Assembly: GCA_003139095.1 (NCBI GenBank)
Contig: PLHW01000062.1
Span: 62,001-126,000, forward strand
Length of the DNA: 64,000 nt
DNA from: Acidobacteriaceae bacterium
GTDB taxonomy: Bacteria; Acidobacteriota; Terriglobia; Terriglobales; Acidobacteriaceae
Reading direction: 5' to 3'
Notes under the pieces: model-generated
The model's database searches: none
Seen by the model: the letters and a program-made list of their open reading frames with translations, nothing else
What the model was told of the DNA's origin: nothing
Part shown: positions 49,348 through 63,457 of the stretch, piece by piece
Position numbering within the stretch: the stretch's first letter is position 1
Layout of the letters: each line of letters opens with the position of its first letter
Made by a program: the position numbers and the translations under genes

Positions 49348-50895
49348 ATGAATAAATCAAGGCAACATCGAAATTGGATTCTTGGGATATGCCGGCGAGT
49401 GGCTGAAGCCGCGCTGGCTTTGGCGATCATGCTTGTACCGGCAATCCTCGCAACCGGATCGACGCAGGCGCAAACTTACTCTTACAAAGTGGTCCATTCG
49501 TTTACGGGCACGCCGGACGGCGCCTATCCCCCGTCATATGGCGCAGGCGCAACGCTGGACGCGAAAGGCAACCTCTACGACACTACGGCCAGTGGAGGCG
49601 CTTACGACTTCGGAACGGTGTTCAAGGTGAACCCCGCCGGCAAGGAGACCGTGCTTTACAGCTTCACTGGTCAAGCGGACAGTGGGGCTCCCAACGCAGG
49701 CTTAGTGCGGGACGCGCAGGGCAATCTTTATGGCACTACCTTTGGTGGCGGACAAAGTATCTGGGGAACGGTGTTCAAGCTGGATACGGCCGGCAACCTG
49801 ACGACGCTCTACAACTTAGCCAACGCACATGCGTTGGCAGGGTTGGTGGAGGACGCGCAGGGCAACCTGTATGGCACTACCTACGATGGCGGCGTTCCAA
49901 ATGGCTCGGGGATGGTGTATGAGGTGGATAACACCGGCAAGGAGACCCAGCTCTACGCCTTCACCGGAGGGGCGGACGGCTCAACTCCCTACGGAGGTGT
50001 AGTGCTGGATGCGCAGGGCAACCTGTACGGTACTACCGCGTCGGGTGGCGCTTATGGCTCGGGAACGGTATTCAAGCTGGACACGGCCGGCAACGAGACC
50101 GTGCTATACAGCTTCACCGGCCAAGCGGGCGGCGGAGGGCCCGAGGCAGGTCTAGTGTTGGACGTGCAAGGCAACCTCTATGGCACGGCCTCCGGGGGCG
50201 GAATAAATAATTGTAACTATGGCTGCGGAACGGTGTTCAAGGTGGATCCGGCCGGCAACGAGACCGTGCTCTACAGCTTTGCCGGGGCTCCCGACGGCGC
50301 AACTCCCTTGGCAAGCTTAGTGCGGGACGCCGAGGGCAACCTGTATGGCACGACCTTTAGTGGTGGAAATTCCGGGTGCGGCCCTTGGCAACGGTGCGGG
50401 ACAGTATTCAAGGTGGATACCACCGGCAGCGAAACCGTGCTCCACCGCTTCACGGGCCTTGGGGGGGACGGCGGAAATCCCTGGGCAGCCATAGCGCTGG
50501 ACGCCAAGGGCGACCTGTTCGGCACCACCTACGATGGCGGAAATCTTGCGTGCAACGCGCCCACAGGCTGCGGAACGGTGTTCAAGCTGACGCCTGGGAA
50601 AGTGACCAAGACCACCACCACGCTCACGTCTGCGCCGAATCCATCCACCTATGGAGAGGCGGTGACCTTCGCAGCAATGGTCGCGCCTGCGCCGCCGGAT
50701 GGAGAGATCGTCTCGTTCATGAAGGGCAAAACTGTATTGGGAACGGGACTGTTGAGCAGCGGCACAGCCACGTTTGTAACCTCGACGCTAAAGGTGGGCA
50801 CTACGACGGTCACGGCTGTCTACGGCGGCGACTCGGATTTCAAGGCCAGCAAGTCGAAGCCGGTCAAGCAGGTGGTCGAGAAAGCCGGAGAGTGA
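49348..50895 (+). CDS. Secreted GloVer-repeat protein, copy 2
   Basis: A 515-residue paralogue of copy 1 with the same order (signal peptide ending QAQ, GloVer repeats, Ig-like tail). Its last ~240 bases are almost identical to those of copy 1, with roughly eight differences by eye, while the repeat part has diverged more; this points to recent duplication or gene conversion. GGAGCGGACTTATGAATAA precedes and includes the start, as in copies 1 and 3. Confidence 0.88.
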   Translation: MNKSRQHRNWILGICRRVAEAALALAIMLVPAILATGSTQAQTYSYKVVHSFTGTPDGAYPPSYGAGATLDAKGNLYDTTASGGAYDFGTVFKVNPAGKETVLYSFTGQADSGAPNAGLVRDAQGNLYGTTFGGGQSIWGTVFKLDTAGNLTTLYNLANAHALAGLVEDAQGNLYGTTYDGGVPNGSGMVYEVDNTGKETQLYAFTGGADGSTPYGGVVLDAQGNLYGTTASGGAYGSGTVFKLDTAGNETVLYSFTGQAGGGGPEAGLVLDVQGNLYGTASGGGINNCNYGCGTVFKVDPAGNETVLYSFAGAPDGATPLASLVRDAEGNLYGTTFSGGNSGCGPWQRCGTVFKVDTTGSETVLHRFTGLGGDGGNPWAAIALDAKGDLFGTTYDGGNLACNAPTGCGTVFKLTPGKVTKTTTTLTSAPNPSTYGEAVTFAAMVAPAPPDGEIVSFMKGKTVLGTGLLSSGTATFVTSTLKVGTTTVTAVYGGDSDFKASKSKPVKQVVEKAGE

Positions 50896-50946
50896 CGCGT
50901 CGGGATCTTCCTCATTTTCGGCAATCAGAACTTAAGGAGCGGACTT

Positions 50947-52557
50947 ATGAATAACTCACGGCAACATCGAAGTTGGATTCATGGCGTATGCCGGCGAACG
51001 GCATGCGCCGCGCTGGCGTTAGCGATCATGCTGGTACCGGCACTCCTAGCGACCGCATCGGCACAAGCGCAGATCTACTCCTACAACGTGCTCCATAAGT
51101 TCACCGGCGTGCCCGATGGCACAAATCCCTTTGGAGGTTTAGTGCTGGACGCACAAGGCAATCTGTATGGCACTACCTGGTTCGGGGGCGACCCTGCATG
51201 CAGCTGCGGAGTCGTGTTCAAGGTGGATACAAGCGGCAAGGAAACTATCCTCTACTCTTTCACCGGAATTCGAGCGGACGGACGGCCTTGGGGGAACTTG
51301 GCGATGGACGCGCAGGGCAACCTGTACGGTGCTACTTACTCCAGCTGGACGATTTTCGAGGTTGACACGAATGGCAATGAGACCGTCCTCTACACCTTCA
51401 CCGGCGGAGCCGACGGCGGGAGGCCGACCGGAGGCTTAGTGCTGGACGACCAAGGCAATCTGTATGGCACCACTTGGTACGGCGGAAATTTGAATTGCCA
51501 GGAGGGAGGACAGGGTATCCCCGGTTGCGGAACGGTGTTCGCGCTGGACCCCGCTGGCAACCTAACCGTGCTTTACACCTTCTGCTCGCAAGAAAATTGC
51601 GCGGACGGTGCTCTTCCGAATGGCGGTTTGGTAAGCGATGCGCAGGGCAATCTCTACGGTACGACACAGGTGGGCGGCGCTTACAGGGGTGGGTTTCGCA
51701 CGCCATGCGATCTGGGCTGCGGCACGGTATTCAAGGTCGATCCGAGCGGCCACGAGACAGTGCTCCACAGCTTCAACTTTAATCCGAGCAAAGGAATCCT
51801 GGACGGCGCATATCCCTCCGGGGGATTGGTAATGGACGGACAAGGCAACCTCTATGGCACTACTCGCGGTGGCGGCGCTGGCCCCAAAGGCAAACGCGCA
51901 GGGACCATCTTCAAGGTGGATGCAAGCGGCAATGAGAGCCTGCTTTACAGCTTTGGCGGCAGCAAGCCTGCGCCATCTTCTCCCGTCGGTGCTTTGATCA
52001 TCGACGCCGCAGGCAACTTCTATGGCACGACAGATCTTGGTGGTGCCGACGACCTGGGGACGGTATTCATGCTCGATACTAGTCTCAACCTGGCCGTGCT
52101 TTACAGCTTTGCCAGCAAGAATGGGTTCGACCCATATTCGGGTTTGGTCATGGACGCTTCGGGCAACCTGTATGGCACGACCTTCGCCGGCGGCATCCAG
52201 TCGGACAGCTACTGCGATGTCTCATGCGGAGTGGTGTTCGACTTACTCACGGCGTCGGCGGCGACTACAACCACCCTCACCTCTTCGCCGAATCCCTCCA
52301 CTCATGGACAGCCCGTGACTTTTACTGCGGTGGTCCAATCCGCCGCCGGAACGCCAGCCGACGGGGAAACTGTCTCGTTCATGAAACGAAAGGCGGTGAT
52401 CGGAACAGGAACGTTAAGTGGCGGCTCGGCGAGCTTCACGACCTCCAAACTGGGGGTAGGTACCGTCCCAATCATGGCCCTGTATCCCGGCGACCCGACC
52501 CATAGCCCCAGCACATCGAATGTGGTGGAACAGGTGGTTGAGAAGGCCGCGAAATAA
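50947..52557 (+). CDS. Secreted GloVer-repeat protein, copy 3
   Basis: A 536-residue paralogue. The start (MNNSRQHRSWIHGVCRR ... AQAQ) and the leader match copies 1 and 2. Some repeats carry extra cysteines (CSCG, GIPGC, CSQENC, CDLGC) that may form disulfides. The C-terminal Ig-like domain (SPNPSTHGQPVTFTAVV) is more diverged than those of copies 1 and 2. Last gene of the tandem; uppP is convergent. Confidence 0.88.
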   Translation: MNNSRQHRSWIHGVCRRTACAALALAIMLVPALLATASAQAQIYSYNVLHKFTGVPDGTNPFGGLVLDAQGNLYGTTWFGGDPACSCGVVFKVDTSGKETILYSFTGIRADGRPWGNLAMDAQGNLYGATYSSWTIFEVDTNGNETVLYTFTGGADGGRPTGGLVLDDQGNLYGTTWYGGNLNCQEGGQGIPGCGTVFALDPAGNLTVLYTFCSQENCADGALPNGGLVSDAQGNLYGTTQVGGAYRGGFRTPCDLGCGTVFKVDPSGHETVLHSFNFNPSKGILDGAYPSGGLVMDGQGNLYGTTRGGGAGPKGKRAGTIFKVDASGNESLLYSFGGSKPAPSSPVGALIIDAAGNFYGTTDLGGADDLGTVFMLDTSLNLAVLYSFASKNGFDPYSGLVMDASGNLYGTTFAGGIQSDSYCDVSCGVVFDLLTASAATTTTLTSSPNPSTHGQPVTFTAVVQSAAGTPADGETVSFMKRKAVIGTGTLSGGSASFTTSKLGVGTVPIMALYPGDPTHSPSTSNVVEQVVEKAAK

Positions 52558-56408: not shown

Positions 56409-57401
56409 ATGATGCGGGTGTGTTTGCGCGAAGCGATTCTGCCTGCGTTGGTGTTGGCGATGCTGCTGGGCGCGGCGAGCGCGCCGCTCTCGGCCGCCGA
56501 TCACGGGACGATTGTGCGCGAGGGCATCATTTATATATCGCCCGACGCGAATTCGCACAAACTGGCGCAGGTGGAGCGCGGACGCGAGGTTGTGCTGCTG
56601 GACAAGAGCCACAACTGGCTGCAAGTGGAGGCGCTGCTCGGCTTCGCCAACAATCCGGACCCGGCGTTTATAGAAGATGAGGACGCCGAGCGCAAAACGG
56701 TAACGGGATGGATTGTGGACGCGGGCGTGGTGTGGGCATCGACGCCGAATGGCGACCGGATTATTTATGGCGCGGCGGTGGATTCGGAAGACGAGGCGAG
56801 CCGCGCCCACGGACGGCGCGGGGCGGCGCAGGACGCGCTGCGACTGTACCGGCGGGTGTATGACATTTTTCCGAGTTCGCCGCTGGCGGCGGAGGCGCTG
56901 TATCGCGCGGCTGATATCAGGTGGCAGATTGAAAAGTCGGACATGCAATCGCGGCCGTCGGCGCGCGAGAAGGATTCGTTTTACCGGCAGGCGATCGACG
57001 AAGAACAGATGAAGCTGGTGATCAAGAAATTTCCGGGGACGAAGTGGGCGGAGATGGCGAGTTTTCATTTCATCGACAACAAGCTGTGCGGCGATTGGCA
57101 GGGGACGTCGAAGTGTCCGGACAAGGAAGCGGACATGTACGAGAAGTACGCCAAGGAGCATCCGCAGTCGCCCTCGGCGCCGGAGGCGTTGTATGACGCG
57201 GCGTGGCGGCGGGCGGCGCTGATTGAGATCTATAAGACGGAAGAGCAGCCAAAGAAATCGGACAAGGCGCGAGAGCAGGCGATTGGGCTGGCGCAGCAAC
57301 TGGTCGCGCAATATCCGCAGAGCGACTGGTCGTCGCGGGGGCAGACGCTGCTCTACTTAGTGCAGCAGGGTGTGCCGACTTATGGAAATGCAATTCAGTA
57401 A
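56409..57401 (+). CDS. Exported SH3-like and TPR-like repeat protein
   Basis: A 330-residue exported protein. The signal peptide (MMRVCLREAILPALVLAMLLGAASA) is followed by a bacterial SH3-type part (residues ~35-105, IIYISPDANSHKLAQVERGREVVLLDKSHNWLQVE) and a helical TPR/BamD-like part (residues ~135-310, ALRLYRRVYDIFPSSPLAAEALYRAADI, KKFPGTKWAEMA, KEHPQSPSAPEALYDAAWR). It may act as a periplasmic scaffold. The start is uncertain: an in-frame ATG 56307 lies upstream without a better signal peptide. Confidence 0.75.
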   Translation: MMRVCLREAILPALVLAMLLGAASAPLSAADHGTIVREGIIYISPDANSHKLAQVERGREVVLLDKSHNWLQVEALLGFANNPDPAFIEDEDAERKTVTGWIVDAGVVWASTPNGDRIIYGAAVDSEDEASRAHGRRGAAQDALRLYRRVYDIFPSSPLAAEALYRAADIRWQIEKSDMQSRPSAREKDSFYRQAIDEEQMKLVIKKFPGTKWAEMASFHFIDNKLCGDWQGTSKCPDKEADMYEKYAKEHPQSPSAPEALYDAAWRRAALIEIYKTEEQPKKSDKAREQAIGLAQQLVAQYPQSDWSSRGQTLLYLVQQGVPTYGNAIQ

Positions 57402-57538: not shown

Positions 57539-58798
57539 CTACGGTGTCACCTCGTAGACCACGCCCAAGTTATGGGCTCCGCCATAGGTTGTTGTGCCGT
57601 AGAGGTTGCCGCTGGCGTCGCGGAGCAGCGCGCCACCACCGCCGCCGCCATCGGCGCCACCTTTGAAGTCGTAGAGCACGGTGAAGGTCCATGCACCGCC
57701 GCCGGTGGGAGGAGAAAGTTCATAGACCGAGCCGAAGGTATTGTGGCCCGAGGTGACACCATAAAGATTTCCCGCATCGTCGATGATGAGGGCGCTCGGA
57801 TGACCGCCGTCGGCGCCGTCGGTGAACTCGTAAAGAACGGATTCGGTCCAGCCTCCCTGGCCGTTGGGGCTGAGTTCATAGACGGCGCCAACGCCGGCCG
57901 CGCCGCCGTAATCGGTGGTGCCATAGAGATTGCCGGCGTGATCAAAAACGACGCTGGCGGTTGGGTTCGTGCCGTCGGTGCTCGTTCCGAACGGCAATCC
58001 CTGAAAGAAATAGATCGGCGTCTCGGTCCATTTTCCTTTGATCTTCTGCATCTCGAAGACGGTCCCGGCAAGATGCGGCCCGCCTTCAAAGGTGGTGCCA
58101 TAGATGACGTCGCGCTTCTTCGAAGGGGGGTAAAAGATGGGAGGCGCTTCGGGAGCGGTGCCATCGTTGTTTCCACCCATAAAACTGTAGCGAACTGCTT
58201 CCTTCCACTTTCCGCCCGTCTTGGGTATGAACTGAAACACCAGGCCTTCATTATTCTTGCCGCCGGCAGCCGTCACGCCAAATAAGTGGCCGGCAGGGTC
58301 CAGGACCAGGCCGTCGCAAGAGAGGCCGTCATTGACCGTTGGGAAGGTACCGAGGATGGTTTCGCTCCAACTGCCGCCCGAAGGGGCCAGTTGAAACACG
58401 GAGCCTGTGCCATGCGGGCCGTAGTATAGGTTGCAGCCGGAGAGATTGCCGCTCGCATCCATCACCAGCAAGGCGTAGGGATTGCCGCCGTCCGTGCTCT
58501 GGTCGAAGACGTGGATCACGCTTTCGCTCCAGGAGCCTTGGTTCGGGGTCATCTCGAAAACAACACCGCATCCGGCCGAGAGCTGGGTGCCGCATTCATC
58601 GTTGCCGCCGGTGTTGGTCACTCCAAAGATGTTGCCGCTGGCGTCGAACAGGATTCCGTCTGGATAAGCTCCATCGCTTCCGCCGGCGAAACTGTGCAGC
58701 ACTTTTTCGGTCGCACCCAACGCGTTCTCCGCGAGTATCGACCAGAAACAAAGAACCGCTAGAGAGAACAATAGCCCGCAAAGCCTTCGTAAACGCAT
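57539..58798 (-). CDS. Secreted GloVer-repeat protein, copy 4
   Basis: A 419-residue exported protein: signal peptide (to ~residue 30, LGA), then about seven repeats of the GloVer pattern (VLHSFAGGSDGAYPDGILFDASGNIFGVT, GAVYELSPNGQGGW). Each repeat ends with a W-x-E-S-V segment, unlike the three tandem copies, and there is no Ig-like tail. It is a more distant paralogue placed 5 kb away on the other strand. Confidence 0.87.
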   Translation of the reverse strand: MRLRRLCGLLFSLAVLCFWSILAENALGATEKVLHSFAGGSDGAYPDGILFDASGNIFGVTNTGGNDECGTQLSAGCGVVFEMTPNQGSWSESVIHVFDQSTDGGNPYALLVMDASGNLSGCNLYYGPHGTGSVFQLAPSGGSWSETILGTFPTVNDGLSCDGLVLDPAGHLFGVTAAGGKNNEGLVFQFIPKTGGKWKEAVRYSFMGGNNDGTAPEAPPIFYPPSKKRDVIYGTTFEGGPHLAGTVFEMQKIKGKWTETPIYFFQGLPFGTSTDGTNPTASVVFDHAGNLYGTTDYGGAAGVGAVYELSPNGQGGWTESVLYEFTDGADGGHPSALIIDDAGNLYGVTSGHNTFGSVYELSPPTGGGAWTFTVLYDFKGGADGGGGGGALLRDASGNLYGTTTYGGAHNLGVVYEVTP

Positions 58799-59237: not shown

Positions 59238-60116
59238 ATGAAAAGCACGACGAATGTAAAGAGAGAGGAGGGCGCTCGGTTCCTCCACTATTTCGGGCCG
59301 TTGCTGGACGCTCTGCGCGCTTTGGGCGGATCGGGAACACCCGACGAGGTTGTCGAACGCGTCGCACTCGACCTTAATCTCCCCGATGAGACTCAAAACG
59401 AGACCCTTCCGTCTGGGGAATCGCGATTTCGAAACCAGGTTGCTTGGGCACGTTTCTACCTCGTCCGAGAAGGCCTACTGGATTCGTCAAAACGTGGCGT
59501 CTGGAGTCTCACAGAGCGGGGCCGATCAACAAAACTCTCGCTCGAACAAGCGCGTGAGATTCGTCGTAGGTGGGTTCGTGTCTTTGAAGAAGCGCGCCGT
59601 AAGAAGTCGGATTTCCCAGAGAGCGATCCAGAGATAGACGAAGAGTCCGAAACAGACCTGCAGACTCAACTCATCACGATGCTTCGCACACTTCCGGCTG
59701 AGGGCTTCGAGCGGCTGTCGCAACGTTTGCTACGCGAAGCGGGTTTTGTCCAGGTAGTGGTTACAGGCCGAAGCGGCGATGGCGGCATCGACGGATATGG
59801 CACCCTCCAAGTTAATCCGCTTGTTTCCTTTAAGGTCCTATTTCAGTGCAAACGTTATACAGGGTCCGTTTCTCCCTCTCAGGTTAGGGATTTCAGGGGC
59901 GCGATGTCGGGTCGCGCCGACAAAGGCATCATCATCACGACCGGCACTTTCACCGCCGAGGCCCGTCGCGAAGCCTCCCGTGACGGCGTCCCACCGATCG
60001 AGTTGATTGATGGCGAAAAGCTCGTCGAGATGTTCAAGGATCTTGAGTTTGGACTCAGGCCGGTCAAGACCCATGAAATCGACAAGACATTTTTCGAAGA
60101 ATTTCAGAAGAAGTAG
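59238..60116 (+). CDS. mrr: Mrr-type (type IV) restriction endonuclease
   Basis: A 292-residue nuclease. An N-terminal Mrr-N winged helix (residues ~10-100, HYFGPLLDALRALGGSGTPDEVVERV, VAWARFYLVREGLLDSSKRGVWSLTERG) is followed by the PD-(D/E)XK catalytic domain (residues ~150-270): GFERLSQRLLREAGF, SGDGGIDGYG and FQCKRY supply the catalytic Asp, Gln and Lys. It should cut modified foreign DNA. Single gene bounded by two matching palindromes, consistent with accessory DNA. Confidence 0.9.
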   Translation: MKSTTNVKREEGARFLHYFGPLLDALRALGGSGTPDEVVERVALDLNLPDETQNETLPSGESRFRNQVAWARFYLVREGLLDSSKRGVWSLTERGRSTKLSLEQAREIRRRWVRVFEEARRKKSDFPESDPEIDEESETDLQTQLITMLRTLPAEGFERLSQRLLREAGFVQVVVTGRSGDGGIDGYGTLQVNPLVSFKVLFQCKRYTGSVSPSQVRDFRGAMSGRADKGIIITTGTFTAEARREASRDGVPPIELIDGEKLVEMFKDLEFGLRPVKTHEIDKTFFEEFQKK

Positions 60117-60127
60117 GGGGCCTCGTG

Positions 60128-60160
60128 CCCTACTCATCGCGCACTTTGCGATGAGTGGGC
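60128..60160. repeat. Dispersed palindrome, downstream of the Mrr gene
   Basis: CCCTACTCATCGC (60128-60140) and GCGATGAGTGGGC (60148-60160) pair apart from small mismatches around loop GCACTTT. Related to 59103-59131 and 63702-63728. Confidence 0.75.
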
Positions 60161-60161
60161 T

Positions 60162-60485
60162 TTACCGCGACGCGACTTCGTCCAGTCGCGCCAGCGTGTC
60201 CGGATAACGGCGCACCAGCAGCACAAGGGCCGCCGCCTGTGGATTCGGCTTGGCGCGCCCCTGTTCCCATTTCTCCAACGTTCGCTCGTTAATGCGCAGC
60301 CTGCGTGCGAACACCGCGCGCGAGCAGCGCAGTTTCTTTCGTGTGTCGAGAATGAGTTTCGAATCGACTTTGGGGAGCGGCGCAGACTCAACCTTGTAAC
60401 TCCGCAAAGTGATCTTGCCTTCGCGGTGGCCCTTCATCGCCGCCACCCCCTCCATCAACTCACCGAAAATGTTTCTCTTCGCCAT
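60162..60485 (-). CDS. XRE-family helix-turn-helix protein
   Basis: A 107-residue DNA-binding protein. The helix-turn-helix lies near the C-terminus (RKKLRCSRAVFARRLRINERTLEKWEQGRAKPNPQAAALVLLVRRYP, residues ~48-95), like HigA/MqsA-type antitoxins and NadS regulators. No toxin of the HigB/RelE type precedes it; instead it follows brnA by 47 bases on the same strand. It may be a third member of the BrnTA operon or an orphan antitoxin. Confidence 0.75.
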   Translation of the reverse strand: MAKRNIFGELMEGVAAMKGHREGKITLRSYKVESAPLPKVDSKLILDTRKKLRCSRAVFARRLRINERTLEKWEQGRAKPNPQAAALVLLVRRYPDTLARLDEVASR

Positions 60486-60532
60486 GGCTGACAGTTCCGA
60501 AACCTACTCCCCCAATCCGAAGCTCATCATCC

Positions 60533-60844
60533 CTACCTGCCCGACTTCACAGCCACCAGCATCTCGCGCCGCAGGATGGCGTTGATCCGGGACTGGTAAC
60601 CCTTCCCCTGTCCCTTCAGCCAGTCCAGCACATCGGCATCGACGCGCGCAGTGATCTGGCGCTTGCGCGGGCGATAGAAGTTGCCCCGCCTCGCGTTCTT
60701 CCACTGTTCCTCGGTCATCTCTGGGATATCGCTGGTATCAATCTCGCTGTCGGCACGCCCCGCCAGCGCCATCAACTTCGCCCGCCGCCCTTTCGTCAAC
60801 GCGGGCAGTTTGTCCAATGTGTAGCTAACTATTTTCGTCTTCAT
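60533..60844 (-). CDS. brnA: BrnA family antitoxin
   Basis: A 103-residue antitoxin: helical N-terminus, then DTSDIPEMTEEQWKNARRGNFYRPRKRQITARVDADVLDWLKGQGKGYQSRINAILRREM, the classical BrnA segment with a ribbon-helix-helix domain. It neutralises BrnT and represses the operon. ATG 60844 overlaps the brnT end by 20 bases. Confidence 0.9.
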   Translation of the reverse strand: MKTKIVSYTLDKLPALTKGRRAKLMALAGRADSEIDTSDIPEMTEEQWKNARRGNFYRPRKRQITARVDADVLDWLKGQGKGYQSRINAILRREMLVAVKSGR

Positions 60845-61148
60845 AGCGTCGCCTTTCTTTCCGGGTCGCGGGCCGAGCCGAGATGATGCGAATGACATCG
60901 ACTAGGTTGCTGTGACTAAGTCTGCCGTCCTCGAGTCCTTCCCGCACGGTGTGGGCCACCGTGAGCAGAAGTAAACCCTCGACCATACCAAGGGTCTGCC
61001 AACGCTGCTCCCCGCCCTCGATGCGGTCCTGCACGGAAACGTACAGCGGGTCGCGGAATACCTGGCACGCCTCCTCGAAGCTCACGCCGTGCTTGCGCTG
61101 GTTGGAGAGATTCTTGGTCTCGTCCCACTCGAAGCGGATGCCTGCCAC
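60825..61148 (-). CDS. brnT: BrnT family toxin, second module
   Basis: A 107-residue toxin: IRFEWDETKNLSNQRKHGVSFEEACQVF at the start and IRIISARPATRKERRRYED at the end, both diagnostic for BrnT. It begins with GTG 61148. An AT-rich perfect dyad (61157-61180) sits directly upstream. Only distantly similar to the BrnT at 22982, so it was acquired separately. Confidence 0.9.
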   Translation of the reverse strand: MAGIRFEWDETKNLSNQRKHGVSFEEACQVFRDPLYVSVQDRIEGGEQRWQTLGMVEGLLLLTVAHTVREGLEDGRLSHSNLVDVIRIISARPATRKERRRYEDENS

Positions 61149-61492: not shown

Positions 61493-62380
61493 ATGACTGC
61501 TTCCGCCCCACAAATCACCATCCGCGATCTCCGCACCATCGACGAGCTCGATCAACTGAAGGCTGTCGAGAAAGAAGTCTGGGGAATGGCCGACGAAGAC
61601 TCGCTCCCCATGACCGTGGCGATCGCGCTGAAGGCAGCCGGCAACATCTTCCTCGGCGCCTTCGCAAAAGACAAAGCGGGGAAAGAGAAGATGGTCGGAT
61701 TCGCCTTCGGATTCCTCGGGCGCGAGCATGGGCAGACCACCATCCACTCCCACATGCTCGCCGTGCTCGATGCCTACCGCCATCTCGACCTGGGCGCGAA
61801 GCTCAAGCACGCCCAGCGCGAGCGTACCCTCGCCATGGGCGTGCACGAGATGACGTGGACCTTCGATCCCCTCCAGAGCCGCAACGCCCATTTCAACTTC
61901 GCCAAATTCGGCGTCGTGTCGGATACCTACAAGATAGATTTCTACGGCCCCGAGACTTCCAGTGTGCTGCACCGCAACGGCACCGACCGCCTGTGGGTGC
62001 GCTGGCTGCTGAACTCGCGCCGCGTCCGCGACCGCATCGCGGGGAAGAGCGCAGGCAGCCGCGCCGAGACGCTGGATGCGCTGCGGCTGCTGAAGCCGCT
62101 GGTGCGCTTCGACGGCAAGGGCCAGCCAGCGCGGGCCGAGCTGGCCGAGGCGCTGCGCCGCGAGCGCGTGAGCATCGAGATCCCGGGAGACATCCTGGCG
62201 GTGGAGAAGACAGACGTGGCGCTGGCGCGCGAGTGGCGCGACGCAACCCGCTGGGCCTTCCGCGAGAGCCTGAAAGCTGGGTTCTTCGTCGCCGAGTACT
62301 GCCGCTCTCTGCGCGGGCAGCAGGGGCCGGGGGCGTACCTCCTTCAGCGTGGCCCGCTAGCCGACTTCATCGCCGGGTGA
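61493..62380 (+). CDS. GNAT-family acetyltransferase-like protein (COG3375 type)
   Basis: A 295-residue protein. Residues ~8-160 have the GNAT fold (ITIRDLRTIDELDQLKAVEKEVWG, MVGFAFGFLG, TIHSHMLAVLDAYRHLDLGAKLKHAQRERTLAMGV). The second half is an unassigned, partly helical domain. COG3375 proteins are uncharacterised. GC is high and codon use normal, so it belongs to the chromosomal backbone. Substrate unknown. Two parS palindromes follow its stop. Confidence 0.8.
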   Translation: MTASAPQITIRDLRTIDELDQLKAVEKEVWGMADEDSLPMTVAIALKAAGNIFLGAFAKDKAGKEKMVGFAFGFLGREHGQTTIHSHMLAVLDAYRHLDLGAKLKHAQRERTLAMGVHEMTWTFDPLQSRNAHFNFAKFGVVSDTYKIDFYGPETSSVLHRNGTDRLWVRWLLNSRRVRDRIAGKSAGSRAETLDALRLLKPLVRFDGKGQPARAELAEALRRERVSIEIPGDILAVEKTDVALAREWRDATRWAFRESLKAGFFVAEYCRSLRGQQGPGAYLLQRGPLADFIAG

Positions 62381-62394
62381 GGGGGGCCGGGGTA

Positions 62395-62412
62395 GTGTTC
62401 CACGTGGAACAC
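62395..62412. promoter_or_regulatory. parS site 1 (ParB-binding palindrome)
   Basis: GTGTTCCACGTGGAACAC is a perfect 18-base palindrome whose core TGTTCCACGTGGAACA is a known chromosomal parS form. It lies 15 bases after the GNAT stop. Confidence 0.85.
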
Positions 62413-62436
62413 TTTGCGGGTTGGGGAATGCTCCCA

Positions 62437-62454
62437 ATGTTCCACGTGGAACAT
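62437..62454. promoter_or_regulatory. parS site 2 (ParB-binding palindrome)
   Basis: ATGTTCCACGTGGAACAT, a second perfect palindrome with the same 16-base core, centred 42 bases from the first, i.e. about four helical turns on the same DNA face. Confidence 0.85.
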
Positions 62455-62839
62455 TTGTGCATGTGTAAATATATGTACAGTTTGTACGTTCGTGGGCGAA
62501 GATAATGCGAAACTTGGAGGCGAAAATAAATTTGGTTTTTGGGTGGCGTGAAAGTGGGCGAATCGGGGATTTTTCGTTGGCGGGATGTTTACTATCTGGT
62601 TATAGAGCGCCTTCTTTAATCTTCGTTTGACCTATGAGAAGGCTGGAGTTAGCGCGGGTTTCTGGTTTACGGGTCTAGAATCAAGCACTTATAGCGAAGT
62701 GTTTGGGAGTAAGGGACTTACTAGTGGCGAGTTACCTCGCTTTGCGTGTGATAGGGGGTTTCTGGGGCTGGATTTTGTCAAGTTGACAGGGCGTGCTATG
62801 GGAATTGAAATTCGGGAAGAGCGGCGCGAAGGGGCATGA
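62455..62839. other. Gene-free stretch after parS, G/T-rich on the plus strand
   Basis: No convincing gene. The plus strand is markedly rich in G and T and poor in C between 62510 and 62820. A 70-codon frame (62627-62839) exists but shows no family or ribosome site. Confidence 0.45.
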
Positions 62840-63025: not shown

Positions 63026-63457
63026 ATGGAATACATTGCCTATCTTCATAAAGACCGGGGATCGGATTACGGCGTGAGCTTTCCGGATTTTCCCGGATGC
63101 ATCACCGCCGGACGGACTCTGGACGAAGCGAGCCGGATGGCGGAGGAGGCGCTGGCCCTGCATATCCAGGGCATGATCGAGGACAGAGACCCGGTGCCGG
63201 AACCCTCGAAGCTCGAGGACATTGCGAAGGACGCAGCCCGGCAGGGAGCGATTGCCTTCATGGTGAAAGTGGAAGCGCCGGATGCGACCGTGCGCGTGAA
63301 CATCACGGCGCGGGAAAGCCAGATCGCGAAGATCGACGAGTTAGCCGAGGCTGCCGGCATGACGCGGTCCGGCTATATGGTGCGCGCGGCCATCGGCGGC
63401 CAGCGCGGCGGGATGCGAGCTAAATCGCGCGGCAGGCAGTTCCGGACCCGCCAATAA
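63026..63457 (+). CDS. hicB: HicB family antitoxin
   Basis: A 143-residue protein: RNase-H-like HicB domain (EYIAYLHKDRGSDYGVSFPDFPGCITAGRTLDEASRMAEEAL, residues ~2-45) followed by a C-terminal ribbon-helix-helix-type DNA-binding part (VRVNITARESQIAKIDELAEAAGMTRSGYMVRAAI). CAGGGGAG precedes the ATG. Its toxin partner just upstream is truncated, so this is probably an orphan antitoxin. Confidence 0.88.
   Translation: MEYIAYLHKDRGSDYGVSFPDFPGCITAGRTLDEASRMAEEALALHIQGMIEDRDPVPEPSKLEDIAKDAARQGAIAFMVKVEAPDATVRVNITARESQIAKIDELAEAAGMTRSGYMVRAAIGGQRGGMRAKSRGRQFRTRQ

What the first reader, a model, noticed from the sequence alone, without database searches (positions are those of the whole stretch)
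62395..62454. Pair of ParB-type parS palindromes 42 bp apart
Two perfect 18-base palindromes share the core TGTTCCACGTGGAACA and lie about four helical turns apart, followed by a strand-skewed gene-free stretch. parS sites mark the origin region, so this window may lie near oriC, and the accessory genes at 59-64 kb would be inserted beside it.
Basis: partly seen in the sequence, partly recalled or inferred. Interest (0 to 1): 0.66.

Follow-up and report, generated by a model that had tools for sequence, protein, structure and literature searches.

The report
Scattered centromere sites at skew jumps
The two palindromes are real bacterial centromere (parS) sites, but instead of marking one replication origin they belong to a structured element repeated at about a dozen places in this soil bacterium, most of them sitting where DNA strand composition flips as it normally does only at a replication origin, which hints at a chromosome copied from several fixed start points.

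Summary
In detail: two identical parS 16-mers (62396-62411, 62438-62453), each inside a 20-bp palindrome, 42 bp apart. The genome (acidobacterial, 75 contigs) holds 12 exact and 11 one-mismatch copies on 12 contigs: six beside parAB on C25, 17 scattered over the other 11, often paired. Scattered copies carry an AT-rich tail of TGTACA/TACGTA words that the parAB cluster lacks: 59 of 62 elements examined in this group (corrected). In 200 family genomes a strict form of the composite was found in two genera only (it misses the own genome).

GC skew flips from minus to plus at 38 of 61 scattered elements, against 48 of 617 control intergenic points, on genes of both strands. In one relative, skew falls linearly between two elements and crosses zero at 48.9 kb (midpoint 48.8).

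Best reading: dispersed loci where replication forks diverge, each with its own centromere; SMC loading is the main rival. Against it: no DnaA-box enrichment, genes point towards the elements, some skew flips lack parS and some elements lack flips. 'Near oriC' does not follow from the pair.

The parts
62396..62411 (.). parS 1, exact TGTTCCACGTGGAACA (palindrome extends to 62394-62413)
   Evidence: consensus seen in PMC7022226 passages
62438..62453 (.). parS 2, exact TGTTCCACGTGGAACA (palindrome extends to 62436-62455)
62454..62490 (+). AT-rich tail of mostly alternating purine-pyrimidine TGCAT/TGTAC words directly abutting parS 2; shared with scattered elements, not seen at the parAB cluster
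62455..62480 (.). imperfect dyad TTGTGCAT-N10-ATGTACAG inside the tail
   Evidence: sequence; same layout read by eye at C17, C20, C50, C54
62454..63025 (.). gene-free stretch, GC skew +0.30; start of the plus-skew side (the next 9.9 kb: +0.18)
61493..62380 (+). gene ending 15 bp before parS 1; reads as a GNAT-like acetyltransferase (by eye; no Pfam hit)
63026..63457 (+). HicB-like antitoxin gene to the right
   Evidence: PF15919, 1.7e-32
56460..57401 (+). YfiO/TPR-like gene whose orthologue lies 325 bp from the element in relative G158

Best explanation
Each scattered element is a compound site: one or two parS sequences (ParB loading, a centromere) joined to a ~55-bp AT-rich, alternating purine-pyrimidine tail. 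It marks a place from which replication forks diverge in both directions, so the chromosome of this group would be copied from several fixed sites besides the parAB region, each with its own centromere. Shown: the compound sequence, its repetition, and the origin-type, gene-strand-independent skew flip at most copies. Inferred: that the flip is made by forks, that initiation occurs in the tail, and that ParB binds there.
For: GC skew L<0<R in 38 of 61 scattered elements against 48 of 617 control intergenic points >5 kb away (odds ratio 19.6, p 9e-23); the reverse flip in 2 of 61 against 79 of 617. Third-codon skew changes sign on genes of either strand: + genes -0.14 to -0.22 left, -0.01 within 1 kb right, +0.15 to +0.20 beyond; - genes -0.11 to -0.17 left, +0.21 to +0.36 right (30 loci of 4 genomes). 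The steepest flip lies within 1 kb of the element in 19 of 39 loci (this set also holds two parAB loci, C25 and L187, and the no-flip site C7). In G157, between elements at 12.7 and 84.9 kb skew falls linearly (52 genes, r -0.62) with zero at 48.9 kb; midpoint 48.8. At 45-72 kb of contig C142, a stretch chosen after seeing the profile, genes are homogeneous (sd 0.072, sampling 0.077, 0 of 19 negative): a gradient, not a mosaic of inverted pieces. Polarity (G>C outward) equals that at the parAB locus of G014 and of the right-hand side of G120. The replication-type GC3 signature at elements is 0.29 in G000, 0.31 in G158 and 0.20 in G157, as large as or larger than in G014 (0.19) and G120 (0.16), so a single origin that wanders over time fits these three poorly.
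Against: DnaA-box-like sites are not enriched near elements (0.11 per kb within 1 kb and beyond). Genes point towards the elements (255 of 427; 218 of 367 without the nearest genes), the opposite of usual fork co-orientation. The signature is weak in G095 (0.11) and G150 (0.05) (G150 with L187 included). On contig C50 only 1 of 5 skew minima with change >0.15 has a parS. Five loci from other MAGs show 0 of 5 flips. C46 flips in a 43-bp gap without a tail; C7 (one mismatch) does not flip. The G157 C25 interval 77-110 kb is not a clean ramp. In G120 the 97 kb around dnaA and parS show no sharp flip. 6 of 14 genomes of the own genus have no exact parS. A review states one origin per chromosome in all bacteria (PMC10331603, passages), and Gao 2015 warns that rearrangements can make skew minima (PMC4403523, part 1 of 2). 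No replication data.
Confidence: 0.4

Rival explanations
1. The elements are dispersed ParB/SMC loading sites. SMC moves outward from each parS, and the strand asymmetry reflects that outward movement (mutation or selection), not replication starts.
For: The sites are parS; ParB and SMC are encoded in the own genome. An ectopic parS recruits ParB and gives arm alignment in Caulobacter (PMC5583512, passages). Outward symmetry and a midpoint zero crossing also fit two SMC streams meeting. Tail-less C46 still flips.
Against: I know of no strand-biased mutation caused by SMC (recalled). The 4-mer asymmetry at elements resembles the replication strands of relatives (r 0.68-0.80; relatives among themselves 0.79), less so for k-mers with equal G and C (0.23-0.64; relatives among themselves 0.46). 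Head-on genes hinder SMC, yet genes here point at the elements. Scattered tail-less parS of G014 at 1553 and 1689 kb show no flip, though the one at 1397 kb starts a 15-kb plus stretch and 962 kb a weak change.
Confidence: 0.23
2. Rearrangement history: elements sit at old inversion boundaries or preferred breakpoints, and the skew flips are rearranged pieces of ordinary replichores.
For: Gao 2015 gives rearrangement as a cause of misleading skew minima. Orthologues flanking one G150/G095 element lie far apart on G000 C50. Most larger skew minima on C50 lack parS.
Against: Inversions should give both flip directions; elements give 38 minus-to-plus and 2 plus-to-minus of 61. Graded, homogeneous skew and a midpoint zero. 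Flips occur with tails in either orientation.
Confidence: 0.17
3. The elements are a dispersed repeat or mobile DNA family that carries parS-like arms and inserts into existing skew minima.
For: In G160 seven copies (plus one in fen_338) share a ~250-bp module with several conserved blocks; 7 of 11 hits of one block in the G160 genome lie within 110 bp of a known parS.
Against: Blocks are conserved while spacers between them diverge, and the other species share mainly the tail and short motifs. Target-site duplications were not tested.
Confidence: 0.13
4. Ordinary extra parS copies with incidental placement; the skew link is a by-product of lying in convergent intergenic gaps.
For: Some relatives of other genera carry 10-33 exact parS copies; nearest genes are convergent at 10 of 30 elements and divergent at 3.
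Against: Control convergent gaps have a mean change of -0.014 and 4 of 57 exceed 0.2, against 7 of 11 own scattered elements.
Confidence: 0.07

Closest known systems
Chromosomal parS (ParABS)
   Same: Same 16-mer as the P. putida / P. aeruginosa sites (PMC7022226 table, passages); parA and parB present with a six-site cluster.
   Different: 17 of 23 copies are scattered over 11 contigs away from parAB, many as pairs, and most are joined to a tail that the parAB cluster lacks.
Multiple-origin replication of some cyanobacteria (Synechocystis, Nostoc; PMC7198777, passages)
   Same: A bacterial chromosome with irregular skew and more than one place where replication may start.
   Different: There multiple origins rest on experiment and are DnaA-independent; here fixed sequence-defined sites are seen, DnaA is present, and there is no experiment.
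Human replication N-domains (PMC3320577, search listing and abstract start only; further detail recalled)
   Same: Upward skew jumps at borders and linear decline between them (one clear interval).
   Different: Scale is tens of kb, in a bacterium, with borders marked by parS.
Myxococcus xanthus parS (PMC7022226 table, passages)
   Same: Many copies (22) of nearly the same sequence.
   Different: Recalled: those are clustered near oriC; here they are scattered.

Membership tests
ParB-type parS | 16-bp palindrome matching the consensus | tested here: met
   exact match
ParB-type parS | chromosomal parA-parB in the genome with parS beside them | tested here: met
   C25 rsmG | six sites | parA, parB
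ParB-type parS | clustering near a single oriC | tested here: inconclusive
   17 copies scattered over 11 contigs of a draft whose order is unknown; in G023 copies lie 260 and 536 kb from parAB. A usual habit rather than a strict requirement
ParB-type parS | ParB binding | not testable with these tools
   needs ChIP or in vitro binding
bacterial replication origin | GC-skew switch minus to plus | tested here: met
   38 of 61 elements against 48 of 617 controls
bacterial replication origin | DnaA-box cluster | tested here: not met
   no enrichment in 32 loci; also none in the last 6 kb of L022 before and at parAB and one in 20 kb around dnaA (E. coli-type box, up to 1 mismatch). So I do not file it as a DnaA-type oriC
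bacterial replication origin | AT-rich region that could unwind | tested here: met
   tail AT 0.61-0.72 in the 40 bp next to parS against about 0.40 in flanks; unwinding itself not tested
bacterial replication origin | initiates replication | not testable with these tools
   no replication data

The most novel reading that the evidence does not exclude
A bacterial chromosome replicated from about ten or more fixed, sequence-defined sites, each fused to its own centromere (parS), giving sawtooth skew domains like those between replication origins of larger genomes.
Probability: 0.36. Interest if true: 0.95.

Novelty: new variant of a known kind. Interest (0 to 1): 0.75.

Why it matters
One origin per chromosome is treated as a rule for bacteria (PMC10331603, passages); for the cyanobacterial exceptions the passages I read name no fixed sites in the multiple-origin species. 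If the elements are start sites, this group would show how a bacterium can combine several fixed origins with one segregation system, and would make the question testable by read depth alone. If they are only SMC loading sites, they would show an unknown strand-asymmetric footprint of chromosome folding. I found no description of the compound element or the skew link in my searches (listings and abstract starts), which cover only an open-licence library.

Tried and rejected
Near-oriC from the pair alone: rejected, copies scattered. Helical phasing of the pair: rejected, spacings vary. Transcription as cause of skew: rejected, the flip holds on both gene strands. Convergent-gap artefact: rejected by gap-class controls. 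Element as terminus: rejected, polarity equals that of the parAB locus here and in G014. Dif-like reading of the tail: the dyad fits a 10-6-10 layout by eye, no test was made. Tail at C50 minima without parS: no comparable stretch at 93, 140, 170 or 338 kb; weak words at 92.6 kb (inside a gene) and 334.6 kb; one search printed nothing because its threshold was too high. Rows dropped: L052 (right flank 260 bp); C7:37500 (one mismatch, no flip) and own sites with 2 or more mismatches on C37 and C60 are not in the element counts, while C54 (2 mismatches, with tail) is. One search's GTAC densities include C7, C37 and C60 in the own set and the parAB locus in the G157 and G160 sets. Searches counted L187 as scattered (49 and 54 also C25); one search showed L187 to be G150's parAB locus, so redid the skew and gene-direction counts, and 59 of 63 becomes 59 of 62. 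Searches were not redone. Elements not fetched: G158 C141, C147, C154, C196; G095 C165; G160 C63, C196; all sites of G023 and of the remaining genus members (such as G153, G159, G161, G162). The tail score took the better of two sides while the background took single stretches, so about 2%, not 1%, would pass by chance. Gene calls come from a home-made caller; names such as PolA and ClpB are read by eye.

Full report
Observation. Two exact TGTTCCACGTGGAACA sites lie at 62396-62411 and 62438-62453; each is the core of a 20-bp palindrome. The window is G000:C45:62001-126000 of a 5.53-Mb, 75-contig genome. The genome has 12 exact copies and 11 with one mismatch on 12 contigs; the reversed control pattern has none at that tolerance.

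The main locus. On contig C25 six sites lie between rsmG and parA-parB. ParA-type AAA_31 and GidB/RsmG domains and the ParB family TIGR00180 are recognised. In eight of ten one-contig relatives all sites, or all but one, lie within 3 kb of parB; G014 and G146 are the exceptions. In G014 the skew flips from minus (16 of 16 5-kb bins, 1415-1490 kb) to plus (40 of 44 bins, 1500-1715 kb) at this cluster, an ordinary origin pattern. G120 is plus in 52 of 60 bins over 2.0-2.3 Mb, but the 97 kb around its dnaA and parS show no sharp flip. That these two have one origin is inferred from stretches, not from whole-genome profiles.

The scattered sites. With up to one mismatch they lie on C2, C9, C17, C20, C31, C45, C46, C47, C50, C71 and C7; C54 has a two-mismatch site with a tail; seven loci are pairs. 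Near them GTAC is enriched: 6.3 per kb within 60 bp against 1.5 far away in G000, 18.3 against 1.4 in G157, 18.6 against 1.9 in G160; in G014, whose scattered sites have no tail, 0 within 120 bp (sets as told under Tried and rejected). Oriented by the tail, 59 of 62 elements score at or above the 99th percentile of 2641 intergenic stretches of C50; the three below are L026 (C46), L071 and L185; AT is 0.61-0.72 over the 40 bp before parS (L187 removed). Some elements of G095, G150 and G160 share a further motif TAACTCGTTTC about 72 bp from parS. G160 has a ~250-bp module with several conserved blocks; one block has 11 hits in the G160 genome, 7 within 110 bp of a known parS, and 0 in the own genome. 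A strict composite (parS, then GTACRTA within 30 bases) occurs in 5 of 200 family genomes, in two of 62 genera, with 0 control hits, whereas exact parS occurs in 159 of 200; this pattern misses the own genome and others. A scan of the GTDB genome collection with another strict form gave 20 stretches: 15 in Acidobacteria MAGs (9 of them from palsa_280 and bog_207) and 5 in Gammaproteobacteria.

Skew flip. For the own genome with 4-kb flanks, 10 of 11 scattered elements have minus on the left and plus on the right; control split points in own 20-kb loci do so in 13 of 156. Over seven sets with 2-kb flanks it is 38 of 61 against 48 of 617 control intergenic points: G000 8 of 11, G157 10 of 16, G158 4 of 4, G160 8 of 10, G095 4 of 8, G150 4 of 7, five other MAG loci 0 of 5. 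Right exceeds left in 51 of 61. G014's seven scattered sites with 2-kb flanks give 4 of 7, all small. Gap orientation does not explain the flip. Third-codon skew shows it on genes of both strands, and on C50 skew is coherent over tens of kb whatever the gene strand. The steepest point lies within 1 kb of the element in 19 of 39 loci and within 2 kb in 26 (those 39 include C25, L187 and C7).

Shape. In G157 skew jumps up at elements and declines between them. On C91 between 12.7 and 84.9 kb, 52 genes give r -0.62 (+ genes -0.67, - genes -0.65) and a zero at 48.9 kb against a midpoint of 48.8. On C142 the decline runs from the element at 32 kb to a fitted zero near 127 kb. At 45-72 kb genes are homogeneous, which speaks against a mosaic of inversions. 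The C25 interval is irregular; C151 between 105.6 and 126.1 kb crosses zero near 118-120 kb (midpoint 115.9). Outward strands are rich in G and, weakly, T: GC3 signature 0.29 (G000), 0.31 (G158), 0.20 (G157), 0.11 (G095), 0.05 (G150), against 0.19 (G014) and 0.16 (G120). 4-mer asymmetries correlate with those relatives at 0.68-0.80, but 0.23-0.64 for k-mers with equal G and C (the two relatives with each other 0.79 and 0.46).

Turnover. Some positions are shared: an element lies between PolA and ClpB (read by eye) in G000 and beside ClpB in bog_209; the gene ending at 57401 of the window has its orthologue 325 bp from an element in G158, so about 5 kb with accessory genes separates them here. 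At C50 about 170-174 kb a skew flip without parS lies where G095 has an element next to the orthologue of the gene at 174132 (90.6% identity): perhaps a lost site whose skew persists.

Against. No DnaA-box enrichment; 255 of 427 genes point towards elements; four of five larger minima on C50 lack parS; the five other loci and C7 do not flip; the signature is weak in G095 and G150; copy number varies, with 6 of 14 genus members lacking an exact parS. DnaA is found in the own genome and all six genus members searched, SMC over the cut-off in 7 of 8 genomes (not in G160, an 85%-complete draft), so both main readings are possible.

Literature. parS consensus: PMC7022226 (passages). One origin per chromosome in all bacteria: PMC10331603 (passages). 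No proven case and a warning about skew minima: PMC4403523 (part 1 of 2). Cyanobacterial multiple origins: PMC7198777 (passages). Ectopic parS and SMC: PMC5583512 (passages). A search for parS sites with acidobacteria, ParB and origin gave 0 papers; acidobacteria with GC skew and replication origin gave 8, whose listed titles are not on this.

Verdict. The parS pair is real and is one member of a scattered, compound element shared in its genus and one other, and tied to origin-type skew flips. That the elements start replication is the best but unproven reading (0.40).

Noticed in passing
window 59238-61148: Mrr restriction enzyme, a helix-turn-helix gene and a BrnT-BrnA toxin-antitoxin pair lie just left of the parS pair.
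   Followed up: partly
G014:C1:2439374-2439389 and 2435436-2439224; G000:C45:165344-169282: In G014 one scattered parS lies about 150 bp from the start of the smc gene; in the own genome smc is on the window's contig, about 41 kb right of the pair.
   Followed up: no
L101, L102, L110, L113, L116: Five gammaproteobacterial MAG contigs carry parS with a very similar TTTGTACATATTAATA or TATTAATATGTACAAA flank; three share a motif 2.7 kb away, so it may be one conserved locus.
   Followed up: no
G000 C50 about 85000-85050: A tail-like GTATGTACACATTGTACATA without parS lies near a gene whose relatives (68% identity) flank elements in G160 and fen_338; possibly a decayed element.
   Followed up: partly
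G067, G012, G004, G098, G139: Other family genomes carry 33, 12, 15, 14 and 13 exact parS copies; G067 and G012 (one genus) also match the strict tail pattern, the other three do not.
   Followed up: no
G000 C50 139367-139896: Strongest skew flip on C50 (-0.20 to +0.15) sits at a gap with short repeated CCCCCTATACCCC / GGTGAAAGG stretches and no parS.
   Followed up: no
window 49348-52557, 57539-58798; C25 192665-193852: Repeated family of long secreted-looking proteins with GNLYGTT-type repeats, several copies in the window and on C25.
   Followed up: no
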